This document shows, piece by piece, positions 14,256 to 59,700 of a stretch of 64,000 bases of DNA; position 1 is the stretch's first letter; the number at the start of each line of letters is the position of its first letter. The translations under genes and the position numbers were made by a program. Source of the DNA: Triglochin maritima (lineage: Eukaryota > Streptophyta > Magnoliopsida > Alismatales > Juncaginaceae); NCBI GenBank assembly GCA_963682175.1, contig OY821770.1, positions 17,328,501-17,392,500 on the forward strand, given 5' to 3'. The notes beneath the pieces were generated by a model. The model did not search any database. It was not told the origin of the DNA and saw only the letters and a program-made list of their open reading frames with translations.

Positions 14256-15937
14256 TGTAACGTACCCGAAAACAGCGGAAAATTTAAGCAATAATAAAGA
14301 CCGTCAACGGTCAACACTGGGCACGTCACGGGAAACAAACCAACATATATAATATAAATATGATCCACGTGGAAGTCAAATATACAAACTGACTGTGATT
14401 ACGACAAAAGCTATACAATATGGAATCACCTCAAAAGGAAGAGACTGACAACTACAGGATCTGATCTCGGGGGCACCGTCCTCGGTCACCACCTCAAACT
14501 CTAACCCTGCTCGCTACCTGAAATGCAAACAACAAACATGCCTGAGTTCCCTGCAGGAACCCCGTATACCAAATAGCGAGTCAGCCCGCCGAATACACAA
14601 CTCGGGTCAGACGACAGCCACTGCTCCCCCAAGAGTCGCCTAGCGCGCACCCTGCCGGAACATCCTCGGCCTACCGCTAAACCCTCGCAAACTGCCCAAG
14701 GTTTACGGTACACATCCCTCACACCCCGCTCGGTAAGAGAGGAAAAAGTACAACAATAATACGCCTTCGTCGAAGGTGAAATCCGTAGCTCTCAAAGCCG
14801 GTAATCAACCGTCGCCTCGGAGCCGGTAGTCGACCTGACATCGACGGATCGCGTGTGGATAAATCCACCAACCTGCGGCAGATCGGTCGACCGCTACAAG
14901 CACACCGGTCGACCAGTCCCCCACACAGTACACAGTACTGTACAAACAAGTCTACCGGTCGAACCACGCCAACCGAATTACCGACCAATCGGTCGAACAA
15001 AAGTCATCTAGCGGTCGACCGTTTGGAAGGTCTACGCTATACAATTTTATATAAAATATATATCCGACCGGTCGAACCAAGGGGCCGTTCGACCGATAAC
15101 AGGGATTTCAATATTTTGCCCAAGTCTCGTTCGGTCGACCGGAACACAGTTCGACCGAATCAACACAAGCACTCTACCGCTTAATTAAATGCTCAGTCGG
15201 TCGACCGAGAATTGAAGAGCGGTCGACCGTTTTGTTGGTCAAAGCTCCCAACCGACTTAGCATCGAATGGATCGGTCGAACAAGGTAAAGGACGTTCGAC
15301 CGTTTAATAAGTCAAAATCCCCAACCGACCCATTCTCATCGTTATTCGGTCGACCGGCTAAGTGGTCCCGTTCGACCGATAACAGCATATCCCTTTTTTC
15401 CCGCATGAATTTGGCATAACGGTCGACCGTCCATAGACATCGTTCGACCGTTTGCGGGTAAACATCAATATAATAATAGGATCGGTCGACTGCCCACAGG
15501 CACCGGTCGACCGATCGTCGTCTTCAACCTCTGAATTGGTTGAATTCCGACGGGGAATTCGACACCAACGTCGATCCCCAACACTCACAAGGCACAAGTG
15601 AGTTATATTGAAGATTTGGCATACCTTTTTGACGGTTGAAGAAGCCTCCCTAGCTTTGGCAACCTCAACCCAACACTTGACCTTCTTCTCCTCTTCTTCT
15701 TCTCTCCTTCTTCTTCTTCACCAATTTCGCCTCTCACACACTCTCTGAACTGAACACAAGTGAAGAAACGTTTTAATTAACCCTACACCTCTATTTATAG
15801 TAACATCCAAGCTTATCTTCAATCCACCTCTTAAACTTCAAATCAAAACAAGCCACCTCATCCTTCACTAATCAAGGTTTAATTAGGTTAATTGGTTTAG
15901 TTTAGTTTAATCAGGGTGCTTAGATTAAGTTATTACA
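14256..15937 (-). mobile_element. 3' LTR of gypsy element D
   Basis: The LTR has TG...CA ends (TGTAACGTACCC to AGTTATTACA) and is 1682 bp long. It is nearly identical to the 1907-bp LTR at 20553-22459; I saw only about five to seven substitutions plus small indels. It lacks 225 bp that the other LTR has at about 20872-21096. Exact palindromes start at 14884, 15012, 15132, 15198, 15220, 15347, 15420 and 15504. Confidence 0.95.
14884..15513. repeat. CGGTCGACCG palindrome cluster in gypsy D 3' LTR
   Basis: Eight exact palindromes in 630 bp, plus variants such as CGGTCGACTG at 15483, 21 bp before an exact copy. The equivalent cluster in the 5' LTR (21397-22032) has nine. Confidence 0.95.
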
Positions 15938-15956
15938 ATCTACCCTCCTTAAAAGA
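15938..15956 (-). other. Polypurine tract of gypsy D
   Basis: The minus strand reads AAGGAGGGTAGAT immediately before the 3' LTR. This is the expected primer for plus-strand DNA synthesis in a gypsy element. Confidence 0.8.
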
Positions 15957-15986
15957 ATTTCGTCCGCGAAATTCGAAACAACTGAC

Positions 15987-18900
15987 TTACCGAAATAACT
16001 CTGGATATTGCTTCCTGACATCCTCCTCAATCTCCCAGGTAGCCTCTCTGTCAGTGTGATGCTGCCACCTGACCTTCACCATCGGAATCGCTCTCCTCCT
16101 GAGCTGATGTACCATCTGATCCACAATCTCAACTGGTCTCTCATCTAATGACAAATCCTGCTGGATCTCCGGTACTGATATCTCTATCACATGAGCTGGA
16201 TCGGCCACGTACTTCCTCAACATAGAAACATGGAAGACGTTGTGAAGTCCTGCAAACTGTGGTGGTAGTGCAATCCTATATGCCACCTCACCGACCCGAT
16301 CCAATATCTCAAAAGGTCCGACATACCTCGGACTCAGCTTCCCCTTCTTCCCGAATCTCATCACCCCTCTGGAAGGCGAGATCTTCAGGAAGACATGATC
16401 TCCTACATCAAAAGTCAGCTCACGTCTCCGCGTATCAGCATAACTCTTCTGCCTGCTCTGCGCCGTAGCTAGTCGTCTCCGAATCACGTCGACCTTTTCT
16501 GAATACAACTGAATAATGTCAGGTCCAACTAGCTGTCTCTCGCCCACATCACTCCAGCATACCGGCGATCTACACGGTCTCCCGTATAATGCCTCATAGG
16601 GTGCCATCCCAATACTCGAGTGGTAGCTGTTGTTGTAGGCGAACTCGATCAACGGCAAATGCTCATCCCAATGCCCTGCCCAGTCAAGTGTACACGCTCT
16701 CAGCATGTCCTCCAAAGTCTGTATCGTCCGCTCTGACTGGCCATCTGTCTGTGGGTGGAAAGTTGTGCTAAACTTCAGACGTGTCCCCAGTGCTCTGTGT
16801 AGACTCTCCCAAAATCTCGAAGTGAATCTGGGATCTCTGTCTGAAATAATACTGACCGGCACGCCATGAAGTCTGACAATCTCCTCAATATATAACTTAG
16901 CTAGACCCTCCAGAGCAAGAGTGGTCTTAATAGCTAAGAAATGCGCCAACTTGGTCAGTCGATCGACTATCACCCAAATCGCATCGTGGAATCTCCGTGT
17001 CTTCGGTAGCCCCGTAACAAAATCCATCGTCACGTGCTCCCACTTCCACTCGGGCAACTCAATCCTCTGCATCTGCCCTGCTGGTCTCTGGTGCTCGATC
17101 TTCACCTGCTGACAGACCAAACACCTCGACACGAAGTCTGCAACGTCCTTCTTCATACCTCGCCACCAGAATTTCCGCTGCAGGTCTTTGTACATCTTGG
17201 TGCTCCCTGGATGAATGGAATATCTCGATCTGTGTGCCTCCTCCATGATATCATGTCTCAGGTCCTCTGTCTTCGGCACCCAGATACGGTCTCTGAATCT
17301 CAGACCTCCATCCACTCCAACTCTGAAGTCTGACCCATCTCTGGTAGCTAACTGTAACAAACTGCTCAACTCCTCATCTGTAGTCTGAGCATGAATCACT
17401 GCTGATACTGTCTGAGGCTCTACTCTCAATCCGGCAATCACTGCGCCCTCAGAGCTATCAGCAAATGGCCTCCACTCTGCCAAGGACTCTAGCAGTCTCC
17501 ACTCCTGAATACATAGGCCTGCTACTGATACCTCCACCTTCCGGCTCAAAGCGTCTGCAACCGTGTTCGCCTTCCCCGGATGGTAAGAGATAGTGAAGTC
17601 ATAGTCCTTAATGAACTCAAGCCATCTGCGCTGCCTCATATTCAGCTCCTTCTGCGAGAACAGGTACTTCAGACTCTGATGATCTGTAAACACCTCGAAC
17701 TGCTCGCCATAAAGATAGTGTCTCCAGGTCTTCAGTGCGTGAACCACTGCTGCTAACTCCAAATCATGTGTCGGGTAATTTCTCTCATGGACCTTCAGCT
17801 GTCTGGATGCGTATGCGATCACCCTCCCGTGCTGCATAAGTACACATCCTAAGCCAACACCTGAAGCGTCGCTATAAATCACGAATCCACCCGTGCCACT
17901 CGGCAATGATAAAACTGGTGCTGTGGTCAACAATCTCTTCAGCTCCTGAAAGCTATCCTTGCACTTCTGCGACCAAACAAAAGTGACTCCCTTCTGCGTC
18001 AGAGCCGTCAGTGGTGCTGCCAATCTCGAGAAGTCTTTGATGAAGCGACGGTAATAACCCGCCAGTCCAACAAAGCTCGTAATCTCCGTCACGCTCGTAG
18101 GGGTCCTCCACTGTGTCACTGCCTCTACCTTCGCCGGATCCACTGATATCCCCTCTGCCGATACAATGTGTCCGAGGAATGCCACTCTGTCCAACCAAAA
18201 CTCGCACTTTGAGAACTTAGCATATAACTGCTGAGCCCTCAATATGCTGAGTACAATCCTCAGATGCTCTCTGTGCTGCTCCACATCTGGTGAATAGATC
18301 AAAATGTCATCCACGAAGACAATCACAAATATATCAATATACTGCCTGAACGTCCGGTGCATCAGATCCATGAACGCTGCCGGAGCATTCGTCAATCCAA
18401 ATGGCATCACCAAGAACTCATAGTGTCCATATCTCGTCCTGAAGGCTGTCTTCTGGATGTCCTCATCTCGGATCCTCAACTGGTGATATCCTGAACGCAG
18501 GTCAATCTTCGAGAAAACCTTCGCTGACTGCAGCTGGTCAAAGAGATCCTCAATCCTAGGTAAGGGATACCTATTCTTCACCGTCACCTGGTTCAGCATC
18601 CTGTAGTCTATGCACATCCTCAAGGATCCGTCCTTCTTCTTCACAAACAAAACTGGTGCACCCCAAGGCGAGACGCTCGGTCTGATAAATCCAGAGTCCA
18701 TCAACTCCTGCAACTGCTTCTTCAACTCTGTCAACTCAGCAGGTGCCATCCGGTATGGAGCCTTTGACTGTGGTGTAGTGTCGGCTACCAACTCAATGCC
18801 GAACTCCAACTCCCGGTGTGGTGGTAAACCTGGAATCTCCGCTGGAAAAACATCCGCGAACTCCTGCACCACCTCAATGTCCTCTAGCCTCTGGGACTCT

Positions 18901-20456
18901 GCCTCCGCAACCACAAGTGTCGCCAGAAAAGCTGCACACCCCTGTTGTAACAGTCTCTGAGCTCTCACAGCAGATACAATAATGCGACCCCCTCTGCTTC
19001 TGATCCCTCTAATCAGAATATCAGGCAAACCCTTCCTCGGGATCAAAATCTTCTTCTCACGGCACAAGACTCGAACATCATATTGGGACAGCCAATCCAT
19101 CCCAAGTATGACATCAAAGTCCTCCATCGGTAGCAAGACCAGGTCTGCCGAAAACTCCTGATCTCCCGAAACAACCGTGGCGCCAGGGACAAATCTCCCC
19201 ACAGTGCCCACCAGACCCAGGGGTGTGCTGACCTCCAACGTGGCAGTCAACATCGCAAGGGTACAGCCCAACACTCCCGCAAATCGCTCTGAGATGAACG
19301 AGTGTGTCGCGCCACAATCAAATAACACCCTAGCTACTGAACCTGCGACAAGAAGTGTACCTTCCACGACAGCGCCTCCATCCCGAGCCTCCTCTGCTTG
19401 GATGGTGAAAACTCTGCCAGTGCGCTGCCCCTGCTGTGGTCTGAAAGGTGGTCTACCTCCGCCTCCTCCTCTGCCTGGTGCGGTTAAACCCGGTGGTCTG
19501 CTCGGCCCAGTTCCTCGGCTCGGACAGCTCCTGATAAAGTGACCCATCTGGCCACAACCATGACATGCTCCGGGGGTGAAGCACGGCCCGGAGTGAAACC
19601 TCCCACAAGTACCACAAGGCTCAGGTCGTGGTACTGCAACTCCTGCTCCCTCGAATCGGGGCCTCTTGCCCGGATTCCCTCCAGTCTGACCTCCTGGCCT
19701 CCCAGAGAATCTACCTGATGGCCTCCTCTCATCCTGGTAGTTCTCCCTGTAGTCACGATCAAGAACAGAGGCACTCTTCACTGCATCGGCCAACGTGCTC
19801 GGCATGTGTGTCAGCACCTTCGTCCTCAACTGCTTCTGGAGCCCCCGGACGAACTTCCCAGCCCTCTGCTCCTGTGTGACATACATCTCGGGACAGTAAC
19901 GCTCAAGGGCGTTGAACTTCCCGATGTAGCCTGCCAAGGTCATGTCTCCCTGCTGAAGACTCAGAAACTCCTCCCTCTTCGCATCCTGGACATGCTGCGG
20001 AAAATACTGCTCGTTGAACTCGCCAACGAACTCCTCCCAGGCTCTATCATCTCTGTCCGCAAACACCACTGCAGATGTGGACCTCCACCAGTTGGACGCA
20101 GCACCGCCCAAAACATATGTAGCCAGGCCCACTCTCGCCTCTGGAGGACAACCAATAGCACTGAAGATCTTCTGCATCGTGAAGATCCACTCCTCTGCAG
20201 CCTCTGCGTCGTACTGCCCCAGAAAGGTAGGCGGATGCTGGCGCATAAACCGGTCATGCATAGCGCCAGTCCCCGTCTGCCCAGTCTGTGCCGTCTGCTG
20301 CTGTAGCATCTCTGTCAGACGTCCGACCGTATCGAACAACGTCCGACGCTCATCCTCCCAAGCCTCATCCCTCGCAGTCTCACTCTCACCGCGAGTATGG
20401 GCAACCGCCTTCCCCCGTCTAGGAGGCATCTGCCAAAGGAAACAAGACAATATCAA
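15987..20456 (-). CDS. Intact Gag-Pol polyprotein of gypsy element D (chromovirus, Tekay-like)
   Basis: This single open frame of 1489 codons holds the full machinery for retrotransposition. The likely start is the second Met (MPPRRGK, codon at 20429-20427); the frame itself opens 9 codons earlier. In order it has Gag (about residues 60-235), a zinc knuckle (Cys298 to Cys311, [14 protein letters not shown]) and a protease with FDCGATHSF (Asp380). Reverse transcriptase follows with Asp652 and the FVDD box at 714-717. RNase H has Asp863, Glu900, Asp925 and Asp968. Integrase has an HHCC zinc finger (His1075, His1082, Cys1112, Cys1115) and the DDE triad Asp1145, Asp1206 and Glu1242. The C-terminal 60 residues (PVEIVDQM to TWEIEEDV) resemble a chromodomain. 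The protease triad reads Asp-Cys-Gly where Asp-Ser/Thr-Gly is usual. With near-identical LTRs, a PBS and a PPT, the copy looks potentially autonomous. The lineage call is from memory of motifs. Confidence 0.95.
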
Positions 20457-20537
20457 TATAATCTATGCATGCATGATCCTCTAGACCTAACTCCTAACTC
20501 AAAAGTGGTTTCTTTGGACAAGTACGCCGAGATCAAC

Positions 20538-20550
20538 GCTCTGATACCAA
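20538..20550 (-). other. Primer-binding site (tRNA-iMet) of gypsy D
   Basis: The minus strand reads TTGGTATCAGAGC, complementary to the 3' end of initiator tRNA-Met. It lies 2 bp from the 5' LTR edge at 20553. Confidence 0.9.
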
Positions 20551-21396
20551 ATTGTAACGTACCCGAAAACAGCGGAAAATTTAAGCAATAATAAAGACCG
20601 TCAACGGTCAACACTGGGCACATCACGGGAAACAAACCAACATATATAATATAAATATGATCCACGTGGAAGTCAAATATACAAACTGACTGTGATTACG
20701 ACAAAAGCTATACAATATGTAATCACCTCAAAAGGAAGAGACTGACAACTACAGGATCTGATCTCGGGGGCACCGTCCTCGGTCACCACCTCAAACTCTA
20801 ACCCTGCTCGCTACCTGAAATGCAAACAACAAACATGCCTGAGTTCCCTGCAGGAACCCCGTATACCAAACCTCCTAAAAAAATATAAAAAGGAATTAAA
20901 GACAATGCAATGCTATGCACATGATCATCCGCCTCGGGCCCACAATAATGCCCTCACCGCCTCCGCGGCACTGAACCACTCCTGCCACTAGGGTCAAGTC
21001 AGTCCATCGCTGCCTCACAAGGGTCAGTCGACACCACTGCTCCCAAAAAGTGCAGGAAGGAACCCCCGGTACACGCCGCACCCAAAGAGCGAGTCAGCCC
21101 GCCGAATACACAACTCGGGTCAGACGACAGCCACTGCTCCCCCAAGAGTCGCCTAGCGTGCACCCTGCCGGAACATCCTCGGCCTACCGCTAAACCCTCG
21201 CAAACTGCCCAAGGTTTACGGTACACATCCCTCACACCCCGCTCGGTAAGAGAGGAAAAAGTACAACAATAATACGCCTTCGTCGAAGGTGAAATCCGTA
21301 GCTCTCAAAGCCGGTAATCAACCGTCGCCTCGGAGCCGGTAGTCGACCTGACATCGACGGATCGCGTGTGGATAAATCCACCAACCTGCGGCAGAT

Positions 21397-22032
21397 CGGT
21401 CGACCGCTACAAGCACACCGGTCGACCGGTCCCCCACACAGTACACAGTACTGTACAAACAAGTCTACCGGTCGAACCACGCCAACCGAATTACCGACCA
21501 ATCGGTCGAACAAAAGTCATCTAGCGGTCGACCGTTTGGAAGGTCTACGCTATACAATTTTATATAAAATATATATCCGACCGGTCGAACCAAGGGGCCG
21601 TTCGACCGATAACAGGGATTTCAATATTTTGCCCAAGTCTCGTTCGGTCGACCGGAACTGAAATACAGTTCGACCGAATCAACACAAGCACTCTACCGCT
21701 TAATTAAATGCTCAGTCGGTCGACCGAGAATTGAAGAGCGGTCGACCGTTTTGTTGGTCAAAGCTCCCAACCGACTTAGCATCGAATGGATCGGTCGAAC
21801 AAGGTAAAGGACGTTCGACCGTTTAATAAGTCAAAATCCCCAACCGACCCATTCTCATCGTTATTCGGTCGACCGGCTAAGTGGTCCCGTTCGACCGATA
21901 ACAGCATATCCCCTTTTTCCCGCATGAATTTGGCATAACGGTCGACCGTCCATAGACATCGTTCGACCGTTTGCGGGTAAACATCAATATAATAATAGGA
22001 TCGGTCGACTGCCCACAGGCACCGGTCGACCG
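21397..22032. repeat. CGGTCGACCG palindrome cluster in gypsy D 5' LTR
   Basis: Nine exact palindromes. Pairs at 21397/21419 and 21717/21739 are exactly 22 bp apart. Confidence 0.95.
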
Positions 22033-22309
22033 ATCGTCGTCTTCAACCTCTGAATTGGTTGAATTCCGACGGGGAATTCGACACCAACGTCGATCCCCAA
22101 CACTCACAAGGCACAAGTGAGTTATATTGAAGATTTGGCATACCTTTTTGACGGTTGAAGAAGCCTCCCTAGCTTTGGCAACCTCAACCCAACACTTGAC
22201 CTTCTTCTCCTCTTCTTCTTCTTCTCTCCTTCTTCTTCTTCACCAATTTCGCCTCTCACACACTCTCTGAACTGAACACAAGTGAAGAAACGTTTTAATT
22301 AACCCTACA

Positions 22310-22323
22310 CCTCTATTTATAGT
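22310..22323 (-). promoter_or_regulatory. TATA box of gypsy D 5' LTR
   Basis: The minus strand reads CTATAAATAGAGG in the 5' LTR upstream of the leader. This is a good plant TATA box for transcription of the element. The same box is present in the other LTR near 15788-15801. Confidence 0.6.
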
Positions 22324-22464
22324 AACATCCAAGCTTATCTTCAATCCACCTCTTAAACTTCAAATCAAAACAAGCCACCTCATCCTTCACTAATCAAGGT
22401 TTAATTAGGTTAATTGGTTTAGTTTAGTTTAATCAGGGTGCTTAGATTAAGTTATTACATGTGG

Positions 22465-22559
22465 TGTCTGGAGGTTATGTTAGTTGTCGTTGATTTGTGT
22501 TGATTTCTCGTCGAGTTGATTCGATTTGCTGCATTGCATTCGATTTGTGTGATCAGGTG
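22465..22559. other. Host sequence right of the gypsy D target site
   Basis: This short stretch continues the interrupted spacer of 13431-14255 and joins the right inverted-repeat arm. No gene is seen. Confidence 0.5.
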
Positions 22560-24148: not shown

Positions 24149-24722
<574 letters not shown>

Positions 24723-26024: not shown

Positions 26025-27148
26025 GGCGGTGAAGTTTAGGGTTGAGTATTGTGGATTGAGAGCTTGAAGATGGATAGGATTTGGCTTTGAATATTAGACA
26101 GATAGGAAGTGTTCAAGAGATCCAAAACCAACAAATGAGGTCCTATTTATAAGCCTTCAAACAAAACTAGCCATTTTGGAGTTGGTGGGGAAATGGACCA
26201 ATAGGAATGCAAGATGTGACTTAAGCTCGGGCAGAAATCGATGCATCTTCGGTCGACCGTTAACCAAATAGTAGTCCAAAGAATTGTTATGATTTAAGAA
26301 TTTGGTTGACCGATTAAGTATTGGATCACCGTTCACCAACCTCCAGTAGCTTTTATCTATTTAGCCCTAATTAAGTTCGGTTCACCAAAGTACATTCGGT
26401 TCACCGTTCCAAGGTGGACAATAGAATTAGGTGGGCTCTCATCTACTCAAGTTCGGTTGGCCGTGTACACTTCGGTAGACCGAAGTTAGTGCAGGTTTTG
26501 TGCTGACAGTTATAGCTCAAATAATGGTTGGGTACAATAGTCAAGTGTCACGTGTAAATAGTCGTTGCGCACCTAAAGCCAATAAGGAATCGGTAGACCG
26601 ATATGTATTCGATCGTCCGAAGTGGGATAAGTCAATTGGGCTCTAGGGACTCAATTCGAATGCGACCGTTGGAGCAAAGTCCAAAACCGGTCCATGGCTA
26701 TTCGGTCGACCGAAGGTGGTTCGGTCTTCCCTTAGGGCAATTCCATAGAACACCTAAGTTTTACTGGTGGGAAGTATTCGGGTATCCGAAAGGTGTTCGG
26801 TGGACCGAACTAGACAAGATTCGGTTGACCGAAAGAGGTTCGGTTTACCGATGATGGACGGGACAGAATCCTAGTACTCAAGTTTACATTAAACCTTATG
26901 GACTCAATAAATATAAAATTACATGTATTGGTCCAAAGCTTTGATTACAAGTCTTGAGTCTTGATGTCTTTGTCCCAATGCTCGTTTACTTGATTGTCTT
27001 GATCAACCTATTAAGATGTTTACAAGTATACAAGTATGTATGCAATGCATGTAATCATGTTTGCTCACTTTGATTAACTAGGTTGATTGATTAAGATTAG
27101 TTTAATTAAGCATCAAAATTAATAGAGATTAAGGCCAAAAATCCAACA
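26025..27148 (-). mobile_element. 3' LTR of SIRE-like element C (truncated)
   Basis: Positions 26025-27148 match 29618-30737 at high identity; the first roughly 410 bp of the LTR (as in 29210-29617) are missing on the left. A TATA motif reads on the minus strand near 26145. The end is CCAACA at 27148, next to the polypurine tract AAAAATGGGAGAT on the minus strand (27149-27161). Palindromes lie at 26250 and 26703 among degenerate forms. Confidence 0.85.
26250..26852. repeat. Degenerate palindrome cluster in element C LTR
   Basis: Two exact copies (26250, 26703) lie among variants such as CGGTTGACCG, CGGTAGACCG, CGGTGGACCG and CGGTTTACCG. Most keep the outer CGGT...ACCG. The matching cluster is at 29840-30440. 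Confidence 0.85.
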
Positions 27149-27750: not shown

Positions 27751-29030
27751 TCATTTTGGCCTTAGGTGCCCAAACACTTGAGAACTCTTAGTCACAAAGA
27801 AATGTTTTTCATTCATGGTAATGTGAATAACATGATTTTTGTAGTTGTTAACATAATAACATATATCATGTTTATCTAAAGATTGTTTTTGACTACCTAT
27901 GAGCATATCAAGCATTTTCTTTCCCTTAGTAAATCTTTCAAGATCATTTTGTAATTGAACATTCTTGGCAATTAGATCTTGAATACCATTACTATATGAA
28001 GGTTTTGCATTTAAAGTTGCAATTTCATCAATCAAATGAGTATTCTCTAATGCAATTTTATCATGACTAGCAAGCAATCCATTCTTCTCATTCATGATAG
28101 ATTCAATTTGAGACTGTAGCTCATTGATTTTCTTTTTAGCTACTTTGTTTCTTTGACAAAATTTCTCAAAATTTTCAAGCAATTCATTGAATTCACATTG
28201 AAGTTCATTATACGCATTTGAATGAGTTGAATTAATTGAATCGCGACTAGAGTAAGAAGATATCTCACTATCGTCATCTTCCATTGTCATGAAGCACATC
28301 GAGGCAAATTCGCCTTCAATTGATGAAGATGATGAAGTGTCCCAAGTTGCTTTGAGAGCTTTCTCTTCTCTTTTCTCTTGCTCTTCTTCTTCTCTTTTCT
28401 CCTTTCTTTCTCTTCTTTGAGAAACTCCTTGAATTGTTGTGTTGCCAACTCTTCATTGTCACTATCTTCTTTCTTGGAATTGGCGACGGCGTGTAACCCC
28501 AAAGATTTTTTGGCTCTCTTCTCCTTGCGGTCTTTCATTTGTATCTCATATGTCATGAAACTACCCATAAGCTCCTCAACCGATAATTTGGTGAGATCTT
28601 TTGCTTCTTCGATAGTGGTCGTCTTCTCCTCCCAATCGTCGGTGAGTGACCGGAGAATCTTTTGAGTCATGTCTCCCTTGCTTAACTCCTTGCCAAGTGC
28701 TTTAAGAGAGTTAATGATCTCGGTGAAGCGAGTATGCATCTCGCTTATGTTTTCACCAGATTGCATACAAAATAATTCATATTTATGCATGAGCAAATTA
28801 ATCCTAGTTTCTTTCAATCTAGTTGAACCCTCATGATGCATCTCTAATGTATGCCAAATGTCATAAGCACTTTCACAATCTCTTACCCTATTGTATTCTC
28901 TTTCATTTAACCCCCAATACAAGATGTTCATATTGCGGGAATTCATCTCCGCTTCCTTAATTTTGGGTTTAGTTAAGGATACAATATTATCGTCATTAGG
29001 ATGTGTGTATGGGTTAATATGAATGTCCAA
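27751..29030 (-). pseudogene. Element C gag, frameshifted, without zinc knuckle
   Basis: Two minus-strand frames, 29030-28287 and 28299-27751, together form one SIRE-like gag. The first has the UBN2-type region with NERE...RDCESAYDIWHTLE, SGENISEMHTRFTEI and EEAKDLTKLS, then a Lys/Glu-rich stretch. A one-base frame change in the lysine-rich part near 28370-28385 separates it from the second frame, an acidic coiled-coil part (KKINELQSQIESI). The CCHC knuckle found in element A gag is absent, and the second frame ends soon after a segment reading FVTKSSQVFGHLRPK. The frame also opens upstream of 29030 toward the primer site. Coding capacity is limited to gag, so this is a non-autonomous derivative. 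Confidence 0.8.
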
Positions 29031-29209
29031 TATTTTAAGTCATTGGATTGTAAATATATTCTCATTCTTTTCTTCCAACAGTCATAGTTTAACCCATTAA
29101 ACAATGGTGGCTTAGTTGTGGATAATCATTCACAATGATTAGAAGTATATGCCATGTTAAATTACGATTAAGTAAATGAAATTAGCAACTTAATGCTCTG
29201 ATACCAATT
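29031..29209 (-). other. Element C leader with tRNA-iMet primer-binding site
   Basis: The minus strand reads TTGGTATCAGAGC at 29208-29196, adjacent to the 5' LTR edge at 29210. The rest is leader or the decayed gag N-terminus. Confidence 0.8.
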
Positions 29210-30737
29210 GTTAAGATCTATGGCCCTCTAATCGCTAGATAAATGTGGAATTAAAAATACTAATCAAATGATTAAGAGATAAGACGTGCAAACAACAAAA
29301 TCGACGACACCGGAGTTTAGAGAGGTTCGACACCCACACTCGGGTCTTAGTCCTCCTCGCAAGCCTCGTTCGATCCCCCGAGCCTTGCTACGGTTCCACT
29401 AACCGATCTCCGTTCCGGGCCGAGATCAACACCGCTTACAACACCTCGCCTCGCAAACAACCTCGCCTCGCTCGTGTCTCCTCTCACAATCCGAGAGGGA
29501 GCTTCCTCGAAGCTTTACAACTTGGTGATTCTTTGAATATGGAGATGGAATCACAATCTAACTAACACTTTATACTTGAGCACACTTGGATATTGATATG
29601 GAATTGGATATGCAAGTGGTGAAGTTTAGGCTTGAGTGTTGTGGATTGAGAGCTTGAAGATGGAGAGTATTTGGCTTTGAGTATTGGACAGATAGGAAGT
29701 GTTCAAGAGATCAAAAACCAACAAATGAGGTCCTATTTATAAGCCTTCAAACACAACTAGCCGTTTGGGAGTTGGTGGGGAAATGAACCAATAGGAATGC
29801 AAGATGTGACTTAAGCTCGGGCAGAAATCGATGCATCTTCGGTCGACCATTAACCAAACGGTAGTCCAAAGAATTGTTATGATTTAAGAATTTGGTTGAC
29901 CGATTAAGTATCGGATCACCGTTCACCAACCTCCAGTAGCTTTTATCTATTTAGCCCTAATTAAGTTCGGTTAACCGAAGTACATTCGGTTCACCGTTCC
30001 AAGGTGGACAATAGAATTAGGTGGGCTCTCATCTACTCAAGTTAGGTTGGCCGTGTACACTTCGGTAGACCGAAGTTAGCGCAGATTTTGCGCTGACAGT
30101 TATAGCTCAAATAGTGGTTAAGTACAACGGTCAAGTATCACGTGTAAATAGTCGTTGCGCACCTAAAGCCAATAAGGAATCGGTAGACCGATATGTATTC
30201 GATCGTCCGAAGTGGGATAAGTCAATTGGGCTCTAGGGACTCAATTCGAATGCGACCGTTGGAGCAAAGTCCAAAACCGATCCAGGGCTATTCGGTCGAC
30301 CGAAGGTGGTTCGGTCTTCCGTTGGGGCAATTCCATAGAACACCTGAGTTTTACTGGTGGAAAGTATTCGGGTATCTGAAAGGTGTTCGGTGGACCGAAC
30401 TAGACATGATTCGGTTGGCCGAAAGGGTTCGGTTTACTGATGATGGACGGGACAGAATCCTGTTGCTCAAGTTTATATTAAACCTTATGGACTCAATAAA
30501 TACAAAATTACATGTCTTGGTCCAAAGCTTTGATTACAAGTCTTGAGTCTTGATGTCTTTGTCCCAATGCTCCTTTCCTTGATTGTCTTGATCAACCTAT
30601 TAAGATGTTTACAAGTATACACGTATGTATGCAATGCATGTAATCATGTTTGTTCACTTTGATTGACTAGGTTGATTGATTAAGATTAGTTTAATTAATC
30701 ATCAAAATTAATATAGATTAAGGCCGAAAAGCCAACA
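29210..30737 (-). mobile_element. 5' LTR of SIRE-like element C
   Basis: The LTR is 1528 bp with TG...CA ends (TGTTAAGATC to GCCAACA). Its inner part 29618-30737 is duplicated in the truncated 3' LTR. A TATA motif reads on the minus strand near 29731-29742. One exact palindrome lies at 30293, with many degenerate ones such as CGGTAGACCG and CGGTTGACCG. Confidence 0.85.
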
Positions 30738-31886: not shown

Positions 31887-32103
31887 GCGTCTGGCTAAGA
31901 CGCCTGTACCATCGTGGAGGCGTCTGGCTAAGACGCCTCCACCATCGTTGAGGCGTCTTAGCCAGACGCCTCCACGATGGTGCAGGCGTCTTAGCCAGAC
32001 GCCTATACCATTGTCTAGGCGTCTGGTTAAGACGCCTCGACCATGGTGGAGGCGTTTTAGTCAGACGCCTCCACGATGGTACAGGCGTCTTAGCCAGACG
32101 TCC
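31887..32103. repeat. Array of ~33-bp palindromic units in the MULE
   Basis: About seven units of GCGTCTGGCTAAGACGCC, or its reverse complement, are separated by 15-bp spacers of the CCACCATCGTGG type. Each 18-mer is itself an imperfect palindrome. The unit is 33 bp, a multiple of three, so both strands stay open and encode similar RRLAKTP/RRLSQTP peptide repeats. I treat this as a by-product of the palindromes and not as a gene. Confidence 0.9.
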
Positions 32104-32548: not shown

Positions 32549-32842
32549 TTTTTAAAAAAATAATAAAAAATAATAAAAAATTATGGGCGTCTGACGGAGC
32601 CGCCCCCACGTAGGAGGGGGCGTCTGGCTAAGACGCCTTCCCCATGGAGGAGGCGTCTTACACAGACGCTTGTCCCATGGGCGGAGCGTCTGGGTAAAAC
32701 GCCTCCCCGATGGGTAAGGCGTCTGGGTAAAACGCCGCCCCCATGGGGAAGGCGTCTTAGCCAGACGCCCCCTCCTACGTGGGGGCGGCTCCGTCAGACG
32801 CCCGTAATTTTTTATTATTTTTTATTATTTTTTTATTAAAAA
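32549..32842. repeat. Long near-perfect hairpin in the MULE
   Basis: The left arm (about 32549-32645) and right arm (about 32738-32842) are reverse complements over roughly 95 bp. They share CGTCTGACGGAGCCGCCCC and an AT-rich outer part of AATAAAAAA runs. The roughly 90-bp loop holds more GCGTCT units. A transcript across it would form a long double-stranded RNA stem. Confidence 0.9.
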
Positions 32843-34999: not shown

Positions 35000-35609
35000 C
35001 GGTCGACCGGTTGGTGCAATGGTTGACCGTTCCTAGTGTGATTTTGGGATTCTGCTGCGTGTCGGTCGAACGATGTCTTTGGGAGATCGACCGGTGGTGC
35101 GTTAGAGGCAAGCCCTGGTTGTTTTCAGTCAGACCGGGCCCCTTCGCCGTTCGACCGTGTACACTGTTGTAGGTTTGGTTGAGGGCATTGACCATCTAAA
35201 CGGTCCACCACTCGTTGACTCGTTCGATCGACGAATTAAGTTAACTTATTTGTTCGTTCAACCGATGGTGGTTCGGTCGACCGGTGTTGATTGGATCCGA
35301 TGGAGGATTTTACTAGTGGTTTTCGGTCGACCGAGTGTGCTCGGGGGTTCGACCAGTTGATTATGTTGAGAGATGGAGAATTTTACTGGTAGTTTCCAGT
35401 CGAAAGAGTCCCTTTTTCCGTTTGACCGATTGGTAGCTGTGTTCGTTGAACCTGTGAGGTGACCTTCTAAACGGTCGATCGGTCCCTGACTTTGGTTCGA
35501 CTGAACGTGTGTTGTTGGTGGGAGATGTTCGACCGATGTAGTGTCGGTCGAGGCATTTGCCTGATTTTGGTGAGAGTCGGTCGACCGGGACTCTTGGTTC
35601 GGTCGACCG
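35000..35609. repeat. Palindrome cluster in solo LTR E
   Basis: Exact copies at 35000, 35274, 35324, 35578 and 35600, with the last pair 22 bp apart. Confidence 0.9.
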
Positions 35610-40386: not shown

Positions 40387-42274
40387 GTATTAACGGTCGA
40401 CCACATATTTGTAGGATTTCGTCACATGCTTGAGGTATATTTTATTTTTTTAATACACAAGCAAGATATATTTCATATTTAATCAATAATTTCATGTATA
40501 AGACCGTACCAAGCATTTTAATAAAGATGCATTATACACAATATTAAAATGCACAAGTTGAATCATACCTGAAAGGATTGTCAAACCATTTTCGGTGATT
40601 AGTCACTTTGCACGTTGAATCGCCCGAAAAACTTTCTCCAAGTGTTCACCAAACTTTAAACAAGATTAGAGTGATTTAATCTAGCCAATCAACTCTAATG
40701 CATTGTTAGAATCTAGTTGTTAACCTCTTCTATGCCACCAAGAATTAAATCTCTAGCACTCAATTAATTAAGAGACTTTTAATGGAATGATGGAGAGAAG
40801 ATGTAAAGGCTGTATTTTCAATTGTTGTTTCAAACAGAATGAGGAGAGGTTTATATAGAAAACCCCTATAACTACCTCATGAATGAAACTAATCCACACA
40901 AGATCTATAGTAGTTTTTATCTCCTCCAATCACATTTTGACACGTCATCTTCTTATAACTTTCATTGACTATCATGGGTCACATCCCTCTATTAATCATC
41001 AACAATATCTTATTAATTTGGGCAAAATGCAGGGCATATGGTCGACCTAAATATCTAGCCGGTCGATCATTCTGTTATCTAGAAAAGTTCATGATAATTT
41101 TGGTCAAACTGTGTTTAATCTCGGTCGACCGTTCCCTTTCCAAGAAAGTGTTGGATTTCGTGTCATATACTTGTGTGTATATATATATATATTAAATTTT
41201 ACAAGCAATTAGGATCAGTTTTCATATTTTTCAACAATTTTATGTATACAATTTCTTAATTGTATTTCAATATATATAATAAACTATTTAATATTGAAAT
41301 ACATTCATACCTATCCTAATCATTCATTCAATCACTTACATGTCAAACACACAAACATAAATAAATTCACTCACACATTTGTGTGAGTTCATATGTTCTC
41401 GCGTCCTCGACCTTCGCACATTCTTCTTACACCATGGATGTAAAAATTGTAAAATATAAACATACATCTCTCAATTTGAAACTAAAGTGTCTAATGCAAG
41501 TCCTATATATAAAAGTCCTCTCATATGCATGCATATAAAATAAATAACTTTTACATATACATAAGCCCATGTGATTAATAACAACAATGATATACACATA
41601 TCATTCATTCACATATGACTTCGATTGGAACATATGAACTCACTAATTCCTGCAAAAACGAACAAGTGCAACAATATGTACATTTGTTATTTTACACTAT
41701 TTAGTTGATCATTCATCTCTCAATTAAATAAGTCAAAATCATTTGAAATTGTTTAAAATGATTCAAGCATCCTTAATTCAAGATATTAAAAAAAATTGAA
41801 TTGAAGTTTATCTAAATTCCCAAGAACACTTCAAGGAAAATAAACATATTTGCTCACTTTTGTTTCGCCGATTCCAAGTAAAACAATCATTTAAAATAAA
41901 CAAAAAATTTAACAACTAGACATAAGTCTAAAACTTGATTTTAATAATCATATGACATGTTTTGAAACATTTAAAACTCGCAAAAGAAAAATTAAAATCA
42001 AAATAGACAAAACAATCCTATTTTCCCGATTTTTCACCTTAAAGATCAGAATTAATCCATTGATCTTGATGGTTAAAATATTTTCTAACATTAGAAACTA
42101 ATGTAGGAAAATAAGAAACATAAAAATCCATGATTACAATTTGATGCATCCATCAAAAATAAAAAAGAACTCGAAAAATGGCAAAACTCGAATTATTCAA
42201 TTAAGATAGTAAACTAAATATATTAAATAGCCTAATCATTACAAAACACTATGTTGGATTTCGTGCCCTATACT

Positions 42275-42305
<31 letters not shown>

Positions 42306-53436: not shown

Positions 53437-53441
53437 TGAAA

Positions 53442-53717
53442 CATTTTCACAATTTCATAGACCTTGATCTTAACTCAACAGTCCAACTACTAAAATATGT
53501 TCCATTTGATCTCTAGTATTTTCTTATATAATAAATACAGTAAATTAGAATTACCTCTCGGAAGTCAATTATCCATGGAAAAGTAGAACTCAAGAAGCTT
53601 GAACATTAATCACTTTTCCAACTCTCAAGCAACAAATCTTATGATTGTTAGCCACGAACTCATCCCTCAAACGAATACATCGACGCAGACCCAGAGGAGG
53701 AATCCAAAACAAGAACA
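53442..53717. other. Region 3' of the CUL3-like gene
   Basis: The cullin frame does not continue here in any frame I could read. The stretch probably holds the 3' untranslated part of the gene, if it is transcribed, cut by the copia insertion at 53442. Confidence 0.45.
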
Positions 53718-56700
53718 TCAACGCTCTTCCCATGCATCAATCTCTTGAATGGCATAAAATTGTTGTGTAGTCCCTTCCAATTTAGAAGTGAATTGATGCC
53801 CACATTCTTTACTGAGTTTAGCTATAAGAATCATCTCGTTATCCTCAAAAAATGTAAGTTCAGATACTAAACGCTTTGTCAAGTGTTTTTCGTAAAATTT
53901 CTCGAACACTTCCTTCTTCTGCAGCCACCGATATAACATCACTACTTTGTCCATTATAACCTCGACATCGTCTTCGCTAAAGCCTCTCTGCAGTTTGTCG
54001 TCAACATATAAGGAAATAAACTCTGGTGTCCGGTTGTTTAAATTTATGAAGTACTCAAATGATGAATCCAATGCATTCCGGAAAGTGGTGTCCTTGTTAA
54101 ACGCTTGGCTAATGATCTTCTCATGCTTATCTCTCTCATCCAGAAGACGCTGAACAAGATTAACAGGATCTTTTATGTTCTCTGGGTCGAGTACCAAGTG
54201 CTTGCCTGTTTCTCTAATGTGGGACGTCATAACATCTCTGATGGTAGTTAGACCTCCAGTCACCCTCTGGAACAAGCAATACATTCTTCCCAAATCTTCA
54301 TATTTATCATCAATTAACAAGTTCACTAGACCATAATTCTCCATGTGCACGAGCCTTTGCATAGGCTTCGCAATCATCTCTTTCTCCACCACATTTCTTA
54401 ATTTTGTTTCGATACCTGGACATAGATAGTGAGATACTCTTTCGGTTTCTTCATTAAGCCGCCTCTCAACTTTCTCCAGATACTGCCCACAGTCACAACA
54501 TTCAATTAAACGCCGAGACTCGTCTCTATAAAAGATAATTGAAGCATGAAGAAAATCATCCTCAAAATCATCTCGGTATGCTGTACCCAAATCAGAAAGC
54601 ATTTTGGTTGTGTTTCTCATCAAGCCACGATCGATAACTTCACCATTCCGTTCAGTGTGTACGAGTTCAAGCATCGTCTGAAGTAATCTTGTTTGTACTT
54701 CAGTTCTAAGGACGACGACATCCACCCACAGATTCAATCCAAGTTCTCGAACTGGGGTTTTACGTTCGAATTCCACGAATGACCTGTCCATATACATCAC
54801 CACATCTCTAATTGATCTTGTTGCTTTAATATGTTCAATCCACTGCCTATTGAGTTCTTCCAAGAATTGAACCCCTTCCGCTGCTTCAATGGAGTCCGCA
54901 ATGTCCTTCAAATGGCCGGTCATAGTGTCAACTATTCCATTATATAGTTTTTCCCCATGCTTGTGCAACACCATCTCATAAGCGGTTCTGTTTATAGGAA
55001 TTGTAAATTGGTCATACGTGATGTGTATACAAGAGAAATATAAAATGTTCAGAACTCGTACAAGTTGAGCAAAGTAGAAACAACATACAATGTTTTACTC
55101 AAACAGGAAAACACAACTATACCAATAATCTTATTTAATTATCGTTCTCTGTTTCGTTCACATAAAATACACCACACAATAGTTTAAGACAAAGATCAAA
55201 GCAATTAGCAACTAACAAGTCTCATTTTAGTAAAAGAAACTAAAAGTCTTGTTTTTGCTTATTACTAATAGAATATTATACAAGTTAAAATGATATTATA
55301 ATATATTACACACACCAATTAAGTTAATGAGCTATTTTGCTTTTAAAAAACAAACTGTAAAAGTAATATGTCAGTAGGTGTACTTGTTAATTTGCTACCT
55401 ACCTTCACTTTGTATTATATATTTGCTCGCAAGACTAAACCACTCCATATGGTCTCTATCGTAAAAAAAGAAAAGAAAAAGACTCAATACCCGCGGTGCA
55501 GTAGTAATGGTTCACGAATGGGGTGGGCTTGCTGCTCAGTGCTCAACCATACCAAAACGGGCATAACTTTTGACCTGATTGTCGGACCAGAGTGAAACAT
55601 TTTCTATTTGGAACCACCGGTGTTGTCTTGTTGGACGTTGGGTCCATTTTCATCTTAGAATCTGTTTAGGACAGTCTCTTTTGAGTCTGAGATTCTTTAA
55701 ACTTGCATTTGAGATGTAGATAACATTTTGTACAGTAGTAAATTTTTGGAGTGTCTGTCTAATTTTTTATTTGGGACACTAGGTTTTGCATTGATTTTCT
55801 TGTGTTTGATGCACCCTTGCAACACCAACACTGTTAGAACCCAAACCTAAGTTAGAGAGGTTAATGGAGAGTAAGAGGGGTTTTGTATGGGGAAGAGGTG
55901 TGTGAATAGTAGGGTGATGAGAGGTATGGTGTAGGGTGATGGGTAGGGTATGGTGAGGTGAGAGGTTGTGGGTTTTTATAGCAAAAATCCTTCTCTCTCT
56001 CCCATTCGTTTTCCCTCTCTCACTCTTTCCTCTCCAGTTGCACCAGAGGACTCCGTGGCTCCGGCGTGAGGTGATCGGCGTGAGGAGGTCGCGCGACCGG
56101 AGGAAGACGACGTGCGTGAGCGGGCTCCGGCGGTTCATCGTCTTCGTTTGAGGTATGTCGATTCATTAGTGTGGTTGCTTGCTCCCCAAGTGTGGGGGAG
56201 GTGTTGGTCGGCCGGGAGAGGTCGGAGACCTCTACGGCGGCGGGATTCTTCGTAAATCCTTGGCTGGCGCGAGGTTGAAGGCGACCAACGGTCGACCGGG
56301 CCCTTCGGACGGTCGACCGAATGTAGTGTTTTTGCCTGTCTGTTGTGTTTCGGTCGACCAAGTCCTCGTGTTCGGTCGACCGGAACTTAAGTCTATTGGA
56401 TTTTTATATGCATGATGTTCGGACGTTGGTTTTCGTTCAGTCGACAATTTTATGACGTAGAAATACTAGGTTGACCCTGTTAGTTTTCGGTCGACCGAGA
56501 CCCCTGAGTCGGTCGACCGATAGATTCAATTTTGATGTTGACCAGACACCGGATTTTGACCTCGTTCGGTCGACCAGTTTTAGACCTTCGGTAGACCGTT
56601 AGGATTTTTGTGTTGCGCAAATAGTTCGACCGTTGCAGACGCTTCGGTCGACCGATTCCCTTGTGGAAGCGGTCGACCGAGCTGTCACATTCGGTCGACC

Positions 56701-59700
56701 GATTTCCCTTGTGGAAGCGGTCGACCGGATGTCACTTCCGGACGACTGATTCCCTTGAGGAAAACGGTCGACCGAGTGGTCTTTTTCGGTCGACCGTTTT
56801 TGCACAGGACAGAATTCCTGGTTCCCTTTTTGAATTCCAACTTTGTCCACGGAAACCCGTGTCCTCACCTTGTGCGTGAGCCGGGAGGTGACGGTGGGCG
56901 CATTCCGCATGCCTGTCCAGGGACCGCCGTGTGGAAAAGTGTGGGTGTTCGGGACGCGTCACCTCCATGTATGGACCGTGGCTAAGTTGATGGATTGATT
57001 GGACTTATTGTAGTATAGCAGGTCTGAGGGATCGCGGATCCCAATGTTTGATGTTTGTGCGGGCACGCAACTGGCGTTGGGTGAGGTGACTACCGGCCTA
57101 CGGGCTACGGAGGTCGCTGCCCTGCTTTTATAGCGGCGCAATTGGTGTTTGCGGCTCGTGGAGCCTGATGACCTGACAGACTTCGGTCTGGACCCGTCCG
57201 ATGCTGTGCCGGACGTTTGTGATGGACCACCGATGTTGTGCCGGTGATGCCGCCGAGGTGGTGCCGGCGATGATGATTGTTGGACCGAGGCTGTTCCGGC
57301 TATGTTGATTCCTCGACTGGGCACCTATCGAAATGATGTTGTTATACCTTCCGGGCGACGACCCGTTGGTCCCCGTGGCTCCGAACACAGAGATTTGCAG
57401 ATCTGTATTCTATCGGCCCGCAGGCGTGACAGAGGCTCCTTACCGAACCCTTGAGTAGTGTAGCCGCGTGTGGGGGGTGCGATGTCGCGTGCTGTAAGAC
57501 TGCATGTGCCTGCAGTAGGTCTCCTCGGGAGACCCGATGTTGACTGTCGGACTGATGTCCTGTTTTACCCTTCGGGGGGACTGTTTTCCTTTCTGTGGAT
57601 GCCATGACATGCTACTAGTATGATAGGTTCATTTGTGTAATTTACGCATATAGGTGAGTTGGCATACGAGGTTTCCTTCTGGAAACTCAGGCATTGTTGT
57701 CATATATTTTTCAGGATCACAGTAGGTCCAGTGGGTGGTGATCGGCGGGTACGCGCATTTTGGAGTAGGATCCTCTACTCGGACCACTGAGGTCAACATG
57801 ATTACGTTTTATCTTCTTTTGTTGTTCTTAACAACGTCTTCCATGTTTCGATGTTGAGGAAGTACGTTGCAGATCCAGCTCACGTGATTGAGATAGCAGT
57901 GCCAGATTTTCAGCAGGACTTGTCGCTCGAGGAGAGACCAGTCGAGATAGTTGATCGCATGGATCATCAGCTCAGGAGGAGGACTATTCCGATGGTGAAG
58001 GTCAAGTGGCAGTATCACAGTGAGCGCGAGGCCACTTGGGAGATCGAGGAGGAAGTCAGAAGGCAGTACCTAGAGCTTTTCGGTGAGTAGTTTGCTTTGA
58101 TTTCGGGACGAAATCCTTTTAAGTTGGGTGGATTGTTAGAACTCAAACCTAGGTTAGAGAGGTTAATGGAGAGTAAGAAGGGTTTTGTATGGGGAAGAGG
58201 TGCGTGAACAGTAGGGTCGTGGGAGGTATGGTGTAGTGTGATGGGTAGGGTATGGTGAGGTGAGAGGTGGTGGGTTTTTATAGCAAAAATCCTTCTCTCT
58301 CTCCCATTCGTTTTCCCTCTCTCACTCTTTCCTCTCCAGCTGCACCAGAGGACTCCGTGGCTCCGACGTGAGGTGATCGGCGTGAGGAGGTCGCGCGGCC
58401 GGAGGAAGACGACGTGCGTGAGCGGGCTCCGGCGGTTCATCGTCTTCGTTTGAGGTATGTCGATTCATTAGTGTGGTTGCTTGCTCCCCAAGTGTGGGGG
58501 AGGTGTTGGTCGGCCGGGAGAGGTCAGAGACCTCTCCGGCGGCTGGATTCTTCGTAAATCCTCGGCTGGCGCGAAGTTGAAGGCGACCAACGGTCGACCG
58601 GGCCCTTCGGGCGGTCGACCGAATGTAGTGTTTTTGCCTGTCTGTTGTGTTTCGGTCGACCGAGTCCTCCTGTTCGGTCGACCGGAACTTAAGTCTATTG
58701 GATTTTTATATGCATGATGTTCAGACGTTGGTTTTCGTTCGGTCGACCATTTTATGACGTAGAAATACTAGGTTGACCCTGTTAGTTTTCGGTCGACCGA
58801 GACCCCTGAGTCGGTCGACCGATAGAATCGATTTTGATGTTGACCAGACTCCGGATTTTGACCTCGTTCGGTCGACTGGTTTTAGACCTTCGGTAGACCG
58901 TTAGGATTTTTGTGTTGCGCAAATAGTTCGACCGTTGCAGACGCTTCGGTCGACCGACTCCCTTGTGGAAGCGGTCGACCGAGCTGTCACATTCGGTCGA
59001 CCGATTTCCCTTGTGGAAGCGGTCGACCGGATGTCACTTCCGGACGACTGATTCCCTTGAGGAAAACGGTCGACCGAGTGGTCTTTTTCGGTCGACCGTT
59101 TTTGCACAGGACAGAATTCCTGGTTCCGTTTTTGAATGCCAACTTTGTCCACAGAAACCCGTGTCCTCGCCTTGTGCATGAGCCGGGAGGTGACGGTGGG
59201 CGCGTTCCGCGTGCCTGCCCAGGGACCGCCGTGTGGAAAGGTGTGGCTGTTCGGGACGCGTCACCTCCATGTATGGACCGTGGCTAAGTTGATGGATTGA
59301 TTGGACTTATTGTAGTATAGCAGGCCTGAGGGATAAAGGATCCCAATGTTTGATGTTTGTGCGGGCACGCAACTGGCGTTGGGTGAGGTGACTACCGACC
59401 TACGGGCTACGGAGGTCGCTGCCCTGCTTTTATAGCGGCGCAGTTGGTGTTTGCGGCTCGTGGAGCCTGATGACTTGGCAGACTTCGGTATGGACCCGTC
59501 CGATGTTGTGCCGGACGTTTGTGATGGACCACCGATGTTGTGCCGGTGATGCCGCCGAGGTGGTGCCGGCGATGATGATTGTTGGACCGAGGCTGTTCCG
59601 GCTATGTTGATTCCTCGACTGGGCACCTATCGAGATGATGTTGTTATACCTTCCGGGCGACGGCCCCGTTGGTCCCCGTGGCTCCGACCACAGAGATTTG

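What the first reader, a model, noticed from the sequence alone, without database searches (positions are those of the whole stretch)
14884..59098. One 10-bp palindrome, CGGTCGACCG, shared by LTRs of unrelated retrotransposon families
I count about 58 exact copies in the window, where chance would give well under one. They occur only inside LTR-type sequence: SIRE-like copia A and C, solo LTR B, solo LTR E, gypsy D and gypsy F. The rest of these LTRs does not align between copia and gypsy, so common descent of whole LTRs does not explain it. The short Ale copia LTR, the Tat-like LTRs, the MULEs and both host genes lack it. Possible explanations are a host DNA-binding protein exploited as an LTR enhancer, a silencing target rich in CG and CHG sites, or exchange of a small module between families. 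This is the best candidate here for an undescribed system.
Basis: partly seen in the sequence, partly recalled or inferred. Interest (0 to 1): 0.88.

Follow-up and report, generated by a model that had tools for sequence, protein, structure and literature searches.

The report
Shared helix-phased palindrome in retrotransposon LTRs
In this plant genome one 10-base palindrome occurs about 360,000 times; in the stretches studied it forms arrays, mostly spaced by whole turns of the DNA helix, which in the window lie in the end repeats of two unrelated kinds of retrotransposon, where it likely is a docking site for one shared DNA-binding protein that would help switch these elements on.

Summary
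In detail: 58 exact CGGTCGACCG in the window and 359,535 in the 1.06-Gb genome against 90 for the reversed control. In 150 kb placed blind to the motif it is the commonest non-simple 10-mer. It forms arrays in LTRs of copia (A, C) and gypsy (D, F) elements. It is not undescribed: the same decamer is the "repeated motif" of a Vitis Sirevirus, one of a CGG-CCG palindrome class published in 2010 (PMC2829016). I found no report of it in gypsy LTRs. New here: (1) one version in both superfamilies, with no array homology found between typed copia (A, C, fam1) and gypsy (D, F) LTRs beyond the decamer, though unclassed B shares a short module with the D/E group; (2) neighbouring sites tend to lie at multiples of about 10.5 bp, none closer than 18 bp in the loci sampled, though the F family departs from this; (3) motif CpGs outlast other CpGs in three of five families. 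Best reading: sites for one dimeric DNA-binding protein used as an LTR enhancer, gained convergently. The protein is unknown; nothing was tested at the bench.

The parts
273..533 (-). motif array in the 3' LTR of copia element A (3 exact, 1 one-off)
   Evidence: TATAAATAG 107 bp downstream of the last site in LTR sense
1311..1605 (-). motif array in a nested LTR of the fam1 type inside the LTR of A (2 exact, 2 one-off)
   Evidence: TATAAATAG 192 bp downstream; a relative in L021 lies 3' of a copia RT
3383..3974 (.). array of 11 one-mismatch copies, 0 exact, between pol and the 3' LTR of A
   Evidence: spacings phased at 10.5 bp
4492..6105 (-). copia reverse transcriptase (two ORF pieces) of element A
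   Evidence: Pfam RVT_2
11085..11274 (-). motif array in the 5' LTR of A (1 exact, 2 one-off)
12080..12542 (-). motif array of B (3 exact, 6 one-off), class not settled
   Evidence: TATAAATAG 128 bp downstream in minus sense
14256..15937 (-). 3' LTR of gypsy element D; array 14884-15513 (8 exact, 6 one-off)
15987..20462 (-). gag-protease-RT-RNaseH-integrase ORF of gypsy D, 1491 aa, open as it stands
20553..22459 (-). 5' LTR of gypsy D; array 21397-22032 (9 exact, 5 one-off); TSD TGTGG; primer-binding site adjoining
26028..27148 (-). LTR stretch of copia C; array 26250-26831 (2 exact, 4 one-off)
   Evidence: TATAAATAGG 108 bp downstream
28287..29039 (-). copia-type gag of element C
   Evidence: Pfam Retrotran_gag_2
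29618..30737 (-). LTR stretch of copia C; array 29840-30397 (1 exact, 4 one-off)
35000..35609 (+). motif array of E (5 exact, 3 one-off); likely gypsy LTR, sense inferred
   Evidence: 91-bp match to the LTR tail of D; array
41122..41131 (.). single exact copy in a decayed LTR-like repeat
55832..57828 (+). 5' LTR of gypsy F; array 56289-56796 (11 exact, 3 one-off)
57829..58133 (+). only internal remnant of F: end of the integrase region, related to D
58134..60132 (+). 3' LTR of gypsy F; array 58591-59098 (12 exact, 3 one-off)

Best explanation
The palindrome CGGTCGACCG is likely the binding site of one dimeric DNA-binding protein that would act as an LTR enhancer, and copia and gypsy retrotransposons of this genome have likely each built arrays of it on their own. 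Shown: the copy number; arrays in LTRs of both superfamilies in the window; no hit around the sites between the typed copia and gypsy LTRs; spacing that tends to multiples of about 10.5 bp with a floor of 18 bp in the loci sampled; better survival of motif CpGs than of other CpGs in three of five families. Inferred: that a protein binds; that dimers sit on one face of the helix, two or more turns apart; that binding helps transcription, so that copies with arrays spread more; that the protein is encoded by the host (a protein made by one element family and used by others is not excluded). The site version (CGG-TCGA-CCG, four-base centre) would be set by the protein of this genome, and every family that depends on it would follow.
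For: Genome count 359,535 against 90. In 150 kb from 15 stretches placed blind to the motif: 54 exact copies in 7 of 15 stretches, the commonest non-simple 10-mer. CGG-N4-CCG occurs 175 times in those plus the window, 112 with TCGA in the middle, while palindromic N5 occurs 0 times and palindromic N6 once. Verified copia (A, C) and gypsy (D, F) LTRs carry it. Neighbour spacings: best period 10.5 bp between 7 and 16, R 0.55, n 170, phase 0.2 bp; 17 of 18 array units (not all independent families) in phase at spacings of 28 bp or more. After collapsing look-alike spacers at 60% identity 58 of 437 intervals remain: best period 10.6, 1 of 2000 jittered sets as good. No spacing under 18 bp in the loci sampled. 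Genome-wide, exact pairs at 50-54 bp (32,592) outnumber 45-49 (15,132) and 24-28 (7,505). Motif CpG identity against other CpG within arrays: F 0.961 v 0.804, fam1 0.906 v 0.635, B 0.863 v 0.706. In copia A, the nested LTR, B and C a TATAAATAG lies 107-192 bp downstream of the last site.
Against: No protein is known, and no expression, binding or methylation data were available. In gypsy D the best TATA-like box (TATAAATAGA, LTR position 139) lies upstream of the array (428-1054), so the array would be in transcribed sequence; F has no TATAWA at all. F, an abundant family, breaks the phasing (25-bp steps; cosine -0.19 at 28 bp or more), and genome-wide the 45-49 bp class (15,132) is nearly as large as the 40-44 class (15,960). 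In the replication set the best period is 10.1 over all spacings, and 12.1 above 28 bp without the class used to pick it. With look-alike spacers collapsed at 50% only 10 intervals remain and the phasing is not significant. In the two families with only two members motif CpGs did no better than others (0.952 v 1.0 and 0.944 v 1.0). The alignments may favour repeated motifs. B, with a copia-like TATA region, shares a module with the D/E group, so part of the sharing may be exchange.
Confidence: 0.6

Rival explanations
1. The arrays are silencing targets: hairpin-prone transcripts of the palindrome clusters feed small RNAs and dense CG methylation, and the host profits.
For: Arrays fold far better than shuffles (z -9.2 for F over 100 shuffles, -9.3 for D over 20). 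CpG o/e of eight arrays is 1.15-1.65 against 0.85 for the window. In maize, small RNAs concentrate on Sirevirus palindrome clusters (passages of PMC10760457).
Against: Elements should lose a pure target, yet motif CpGs are kept better than others in three of five families. Spacing by the B-DNA turn is not needed for RNA hairpins.
Confidence: 0.15
2. A small module was passed between LTR families by recombination or template switching during reverse transcription, and the shared decamer is its remnant.
For: A segment of about 60 bp with two sites is shared by D, E, L035, L048, L055, L051 and a B-type locus in L019; B groups weakly with copia C and with A and C at its TATA region, so this may cross superfamilies; B and E also match over 137 bp at 70%. 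Single linkage at E<1e-3 merges 54 arrays into 6 groups.
Against: No hit at E<0.01 between the arrays of copia A, C, fam1 and those of gypsy D, E, F. Non-homologous spacers still keep the phase.
Confidence: 0.12
3. The palindrome works in the RNA, for instance as a dimerisation or packaging signal of the element's genomic RNA.
For: Self-complementary, many copies, strong RNA folding; in D the array may be transcribed.
Against: The spacing rule follows 10.5 bp of B-DNA, and sites lie upstream of the TATA box in copia LTRs.
Confidence: 0.05
4. A protein encoded by one element family binds the motif as an anti-silencing factor, and other families carry the site as free riders, as VANC does for VANDAL elements.
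For: VANC21 binds a nine-base motif dense in non-coding parts of its own elements (passages of PMC5735166); the linker of A holds 11 near copies. Several ORFs of A and C have no Pfam match, so an unknown protein is not excluded.
Against: The VANC motif is rare in other TEs, ours is shared; Pfam named no DNA-binding regulator in the 16 of 17 ORFs of at least 150 aa that were scanned.
Confidence: 0.08

Closest known systems
Sirevirus repeated motif (RM), Bousios et al. 2010, PMC2829016 (abstract, sections 9, 10, 11, 19 and passages seen)
   Same: The Vitis Sirevirus RM is the identical decamer CGGTCGACCG; CGG-CCG palindromes, many copies, CpG-rich, upper LTR half, upstream of a TATA box, extra copies in the internal linker.
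   Different: There it is described as a Sirevirus feature absent from classic retrotransposons of a Ty1/copia set; its Table 3 lists no gypsy carrier; no spacing rule and no genome count appear in the parts I read. Here gypsy LTRs carry it, largely helix-phased, with about 360,000 copies in the genome.
Maize Sirevirus LTR palindrome CACCGGAC-N3-GTCCGGTG, PMC10760457 (section 10 and passages seen; Bousios et al. 2016 itself not held)
   Same: Clustered palindrome in copia LTRs, strong RNA folding, also found outside its own superfamily (Helitrons).
   Different: Other centre and length; in maize Ty3/gypsy elements lacked an obvious peak of structure; the sharing reported is with Helitrons.
VANC / YAGTATTAY system of Arabidopsis VANDAL elements, PMC5735166 (passages seen)
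   Same: Short binding motif multiplied in non-coding parts of mobile elements; density matters.
   Different: Motif not palindromic, arrayed in one orientation, highly enriched in one DNA-transposon family and rare in other TEs, binder element-encoded and known.
LOB/LBD transcription factor sites (recalled, from no call)
   Same: Plant-specific zinc-binding dimers recalled to prefer CGG..CCG inverted repeats.
   Different: Recalled spacing of the half-sites is longer; not tested here.

Membership tests
Sirevirus RM box | Palindrome with CGG-CCG signature | tested here: met
   CGG-TCGA-CCG, identical to the Vitis entry
Sirevirus RM box | At least eight copies per element, clustered in the upper LTR half from 200-400 bp | tested here: inconclusive
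   Arrays start at LTR position 318-341 (C), 425-428 (D), 458 (F) and extend about 500-630 bp; C has 2+1 exact and 6+5 sites within one mismatch, A 3+1 exact
Sirevirus RM box | TATA box shortly downstream of the array | tested here: inconclusive
   [quoted passage not shown] not met in gypsy D and F
Sirevirus RM box | Carrier is a Ty1/copia Sirevirus | tested here: not met
   Met at copia level for A and C, lineage not typed; not met for D and F, which are gypsy. So the motif belongs to the RM class, but the gypsy arrays are not Sirevirus RMs
VANC-type anti-silencing motif | Motif nearly confined to one element family whose own protein binds it | tested here: not met
   Shared by copia and gypsy LTRs; binding not testable here
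Transcription factor binding array | Sites phased by the DNA helix with a minimum spacing | tested here: met
   F is an exception, and the replication set is less clean
Transcription factor binding array | A protein binds the site and changes transcription | not testable with these tools
   needs bench work
LBD/LOB target site | Bound by an LBD dimer | not tested
   recalled lead only

The most novel reading that the evidence does not exclude
One trans-acting DNA-binding protein of this plant has become the common activator of unrelated LTR retrotransposons: copia and gypsy families converged on the same ten bases and the same helical grammar, and together they have laid about 360,000 of its sites over the genome, so that a single factor could wake or hold a large part of the mobile genome.
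Probability: 0.35. Interest if true: 0.88.

Novelty: new variant of a known kind. Interest (0 to 1): 0.72.

Why it matters
Sirevirus palindromes have been in print since 2010, and those authors could not name a common binding factor. A genome where the same decamer marks copia and gypsy LTRs, with a helical spacing tendency, gives that question a direct test: pull down with phased and mis-phased arrays. If one factor drives both superfamilies, it would be a single control point for much of a plant's retrotransposon load, and a shared target in the conflict between host and elements. The different palindromes in other plants would then read as a record of that factor changing its taste.

Tried and rejected
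Chance and base composition: rejected by the local Markov control and the reversed-pattern control. Simple satellite or tandem repeat: among the 52 rows only the F arrays appear as a tandem of the motif (47-bp units). Virus-like attachment sites of the Del lineage (PMC4963935, passages): these are LTR end sequences and the word palindrome does not occur in the text; dropped. Literature for the decamer: 34 papers hold the string, 20 were listed, PMC2829016 is the one opened; the other 19 titles have no plausible bearing and 14 were not seen. Searches for a copia-gypsy shared palindrome or phasing listed no such report; I saw listings only, apart from the papers cited, and searches showed 15 of 64 and 10 of 1,629. 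Passages of PMC3414828 and PMC5311732 added nothing on gypsy. An LBD search gave nothing usable. Grouping with 700-bp flanks merged 35 of 43 arrays and sites through nested neighbours and was not used for family counts. Class of B: the piece between L045 and L046 (L063) gave no retroelement hit and holds ORFs that look by eye like a host gene, so B stays unclassed; L065 likewise; L064 is copia. Species: not settled; the cullin search gave at best 67% identity to plant proteins among the 120 listed, which does not place the species.
Full report
What is there. The window holds 58 exact CGGTCGACCG, from 273 to 59098, and it is the commonest 10-mer of the window. A local first-order Markov model expects 0.075 exact and 1.05 one-mismatch copies; 58 and 51 are found. 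The window is part of a 1.063-Gb assembly with 359,535 exact copies, one per 3 kb, against 90 for the same letters reversed. The control has no CpG while the motif has three, so in DNA prone to CpG loss the true excess is if anything larger (inference). Fifteen 10-kb stretches, placed by coordinates without regard to the motif, hold 54 exact copies in 7 of 15 stretches, about the density of the whole genome.

Which elements. Element D (15987-20462 on the minus strand, LTRs 14256-15937 and 20553-22459) is Ty3/gypsy: gag, protease, RT, RNase H, integrase in that order in one ORF, LTRs 99% alike, TSD TGTGG, primer site next to the LTR. F is an LTR pair with about 305 bp between, the remnant being the end of the integrase region at 82% identity to D. 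A is copia by its RT and C by its gag. A relative of the nested LTR in A lies 3' of a copia RT in L021. E matches the LTR tail of D over 91 bp and is likely gypsy. B is unclassed: it groups weakly with copia C and its TATA region resembles A and C, but a relative shares a module with the D/E group.

Descent or convergence. With sites masked and 300-bp flanks, 28 arrays and single sites fall into 14 groups at E<=1e-4 and at least 60 bp. A looser single linkage (E<1e-3, 200-bp flanks) puts 54 arrays of three or more sites into 6 groups, one of them large and holding A, B, C, D, E and F. The best link of each pair of labels is listed: gypsy D, E and relatives share a segment of about 60 bp containing two sites, and a B-type locus has it too, so part of the sharing is descent or exchange, and if B is copia it crosses superfamilies. 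Between the arrays of copia A, C, fam1 and those of gypsy D, E, F no hit at E<0.01 is listed. Two hits link a copia array's flank to a locus of the gypsy-like side: A to L051 (81 bp, 86%, at window about 654-733, outside the A array) and C to L053 (42 bp, 93%, outside the F-type array of L053). So whole-LTR descent does not explain the copia-gypsy sharing, but exchange inside the large group is real.

Spacing. In 20 arrays (some from the same family) the 170 spacings of up to 160 bp between neighbouring sites (at most one mismatch) have their best period at 10.5 bp in a scan from 7 to 16, R 0.55, mean phase 0.2 bp; with the dominant 18-26 bp class removed, n 100, R 0.48, best period 10.6; 0 of 2000 sets jittered by up to 6 bp did as well in either case. 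By array unit (18 units, not all independent families) 18 of 18 have a positive cosine overall and 17 of 18 at spacings of 28 bp or more, F being the exception. Sixteen further loci, chosen for a 24-28 or 40-44 bp pair, give R 0.60 at 10.5 but a best period of 10.1 (R 0.66); above 28 bp R 0.52, best period 10.3; above 28 bp without the 40-44 class R 0.47 at 10.5 but best period 12.1. When look-alike spacers are collapsed at 60% identity, 58 of 437 intervals remain: best period 10.6, R 0.48, 1 of 2000 jittered sets as good; above 28 bp, n 36, 8 of 2000; at 50% only 10 remain and nothing can be said. Over the sampled loci no spacing is under 18 bp and 22 bp is the mode (115 intervals); the genome-wide count under 18 bp did not complete. 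Genome-wide counts of exact pairs, neighbours or not: 24-28 bp 7,505, 40-44 bp 15,960, 45-49 bp 15,132, 50-54 bp 32,592. Many of the 45-49 bp places listed hold a third site between, as 22+25 steps of F-like arrays. Multiples of 10.5 bp put sites on one face of B-DNA, and a floor near two turns suggests a footprint wider than one turn (inference).

Constraint. In families F (7 rows), fam1 (6) and B (4), CpG positions inside exact motifs agree between copies at 0.961, 0.906 and 0.863, other CpGs in the same arrays at 0.804, 0.635 and 0.706; two families with two rows each show no difference in favour of the motif (0.952 v 1.0 and 0.944 v 1.0). Sites within two mismatches were left out of the second class. 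The repeated motif may help the aligner, so this is support and not proof. Base by base, position 4 (T) almost never varies: 3 of 115.

Position in the LTR. In copia A, the nested LTR, B and C a TATAAATAG follows the last site by 107 to 192 bp, start to start; in the other LTR of A an insertion separates them. In gypsy D the best such box (TATAAATAGA, LTR position 139) precedes the array (428-1054) and F has no TATAWA. So upstream-enhancer position is shown for copia-like LTRs only.

What is known. Bousios et al. 2010 (PMC2829016; abstract, sections 9, 10, 11, 19 and passages read) list palindromic repeated motifs in 13 Sireviruses, all but one with a CGG-CCG signature; the Vitis one is CGGTCGACCG. 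They sit upstream of a TATA box, border CpG islands, occur also before the env-like gene, are stated to be absent from classic retrotransposons of their copia set, and no common factor was found. In maize the Sirevirus palindrome is also the top motif of structured Helitron regions, and Ty3 elements lacked an obvious structure peak (PMC10760457, section 10 and passages). I found no report of the motif in gypsy LTRs or of helical phasing, within a library that lacks most subscription papers and the 2016 maize study.

Mechanism. A dimeric protein reading CGG-TCGA-CCG on duplex DNA and acting as an enhancer fits the palindrome, the phasing, the spacing floor, the constraint and the copia position. 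RNA folding of the two arrays tested is strong (z -9.2 and -9.3), so small RNAs are expected from transcripts through them; this is likely a cost and not the reason. Whether the protein is host-made or element-made is open; host-made is favoured because two superfamilies follow one version.

Verdict. Observation confirmed; the class is known, its spread to gypsy LTRs with a helical grammar appears new. New variant of a known kind, interest 0.72.

Noticed in passing
window 3383-3974: Linker of copia A holds 11 one-mismatch copies and no exact copy, phased at 10.5 bp, like the published clusters before the Sirevirus env-like gene; it overlaps a 152-aa ORF without Pfam match.
   Followed up: partly
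window 53718-55094: Uninterrupted 458-aa cullin-3-like ORF, at best 67% identical to listed plant proteins, beside a copia element; perhaps a processed or diverged copy.
   Followed up: partly
window 55832-60132: LTR pair of F separated by only about 305 bp of internal sequence: a gypsy element that lost nearly all its coding part.
   Followed up: partly
window 45429-46902: Long tandem array with period 21 and higher-order 311 bp (CCTTTTTAAG units).
   Followed up: no
window 31898-32100 and 32619-32802: 33-bp tandem units (GGCGTCT..) in two blocks that match each other in both orientations.
   Followed up: no
L063 (C1:264500-266000): Between two B-type arrays lies what looks by eye like a host PII/GlnB-like gene, so the arrays seem to flank a gene and not to be one element.
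   Followed up: no
window 14256-22459: Gypsy D has an open 1491-aa ORF and LTRs 99% alike, so it is likely a recent insertion.
   Followed up: no
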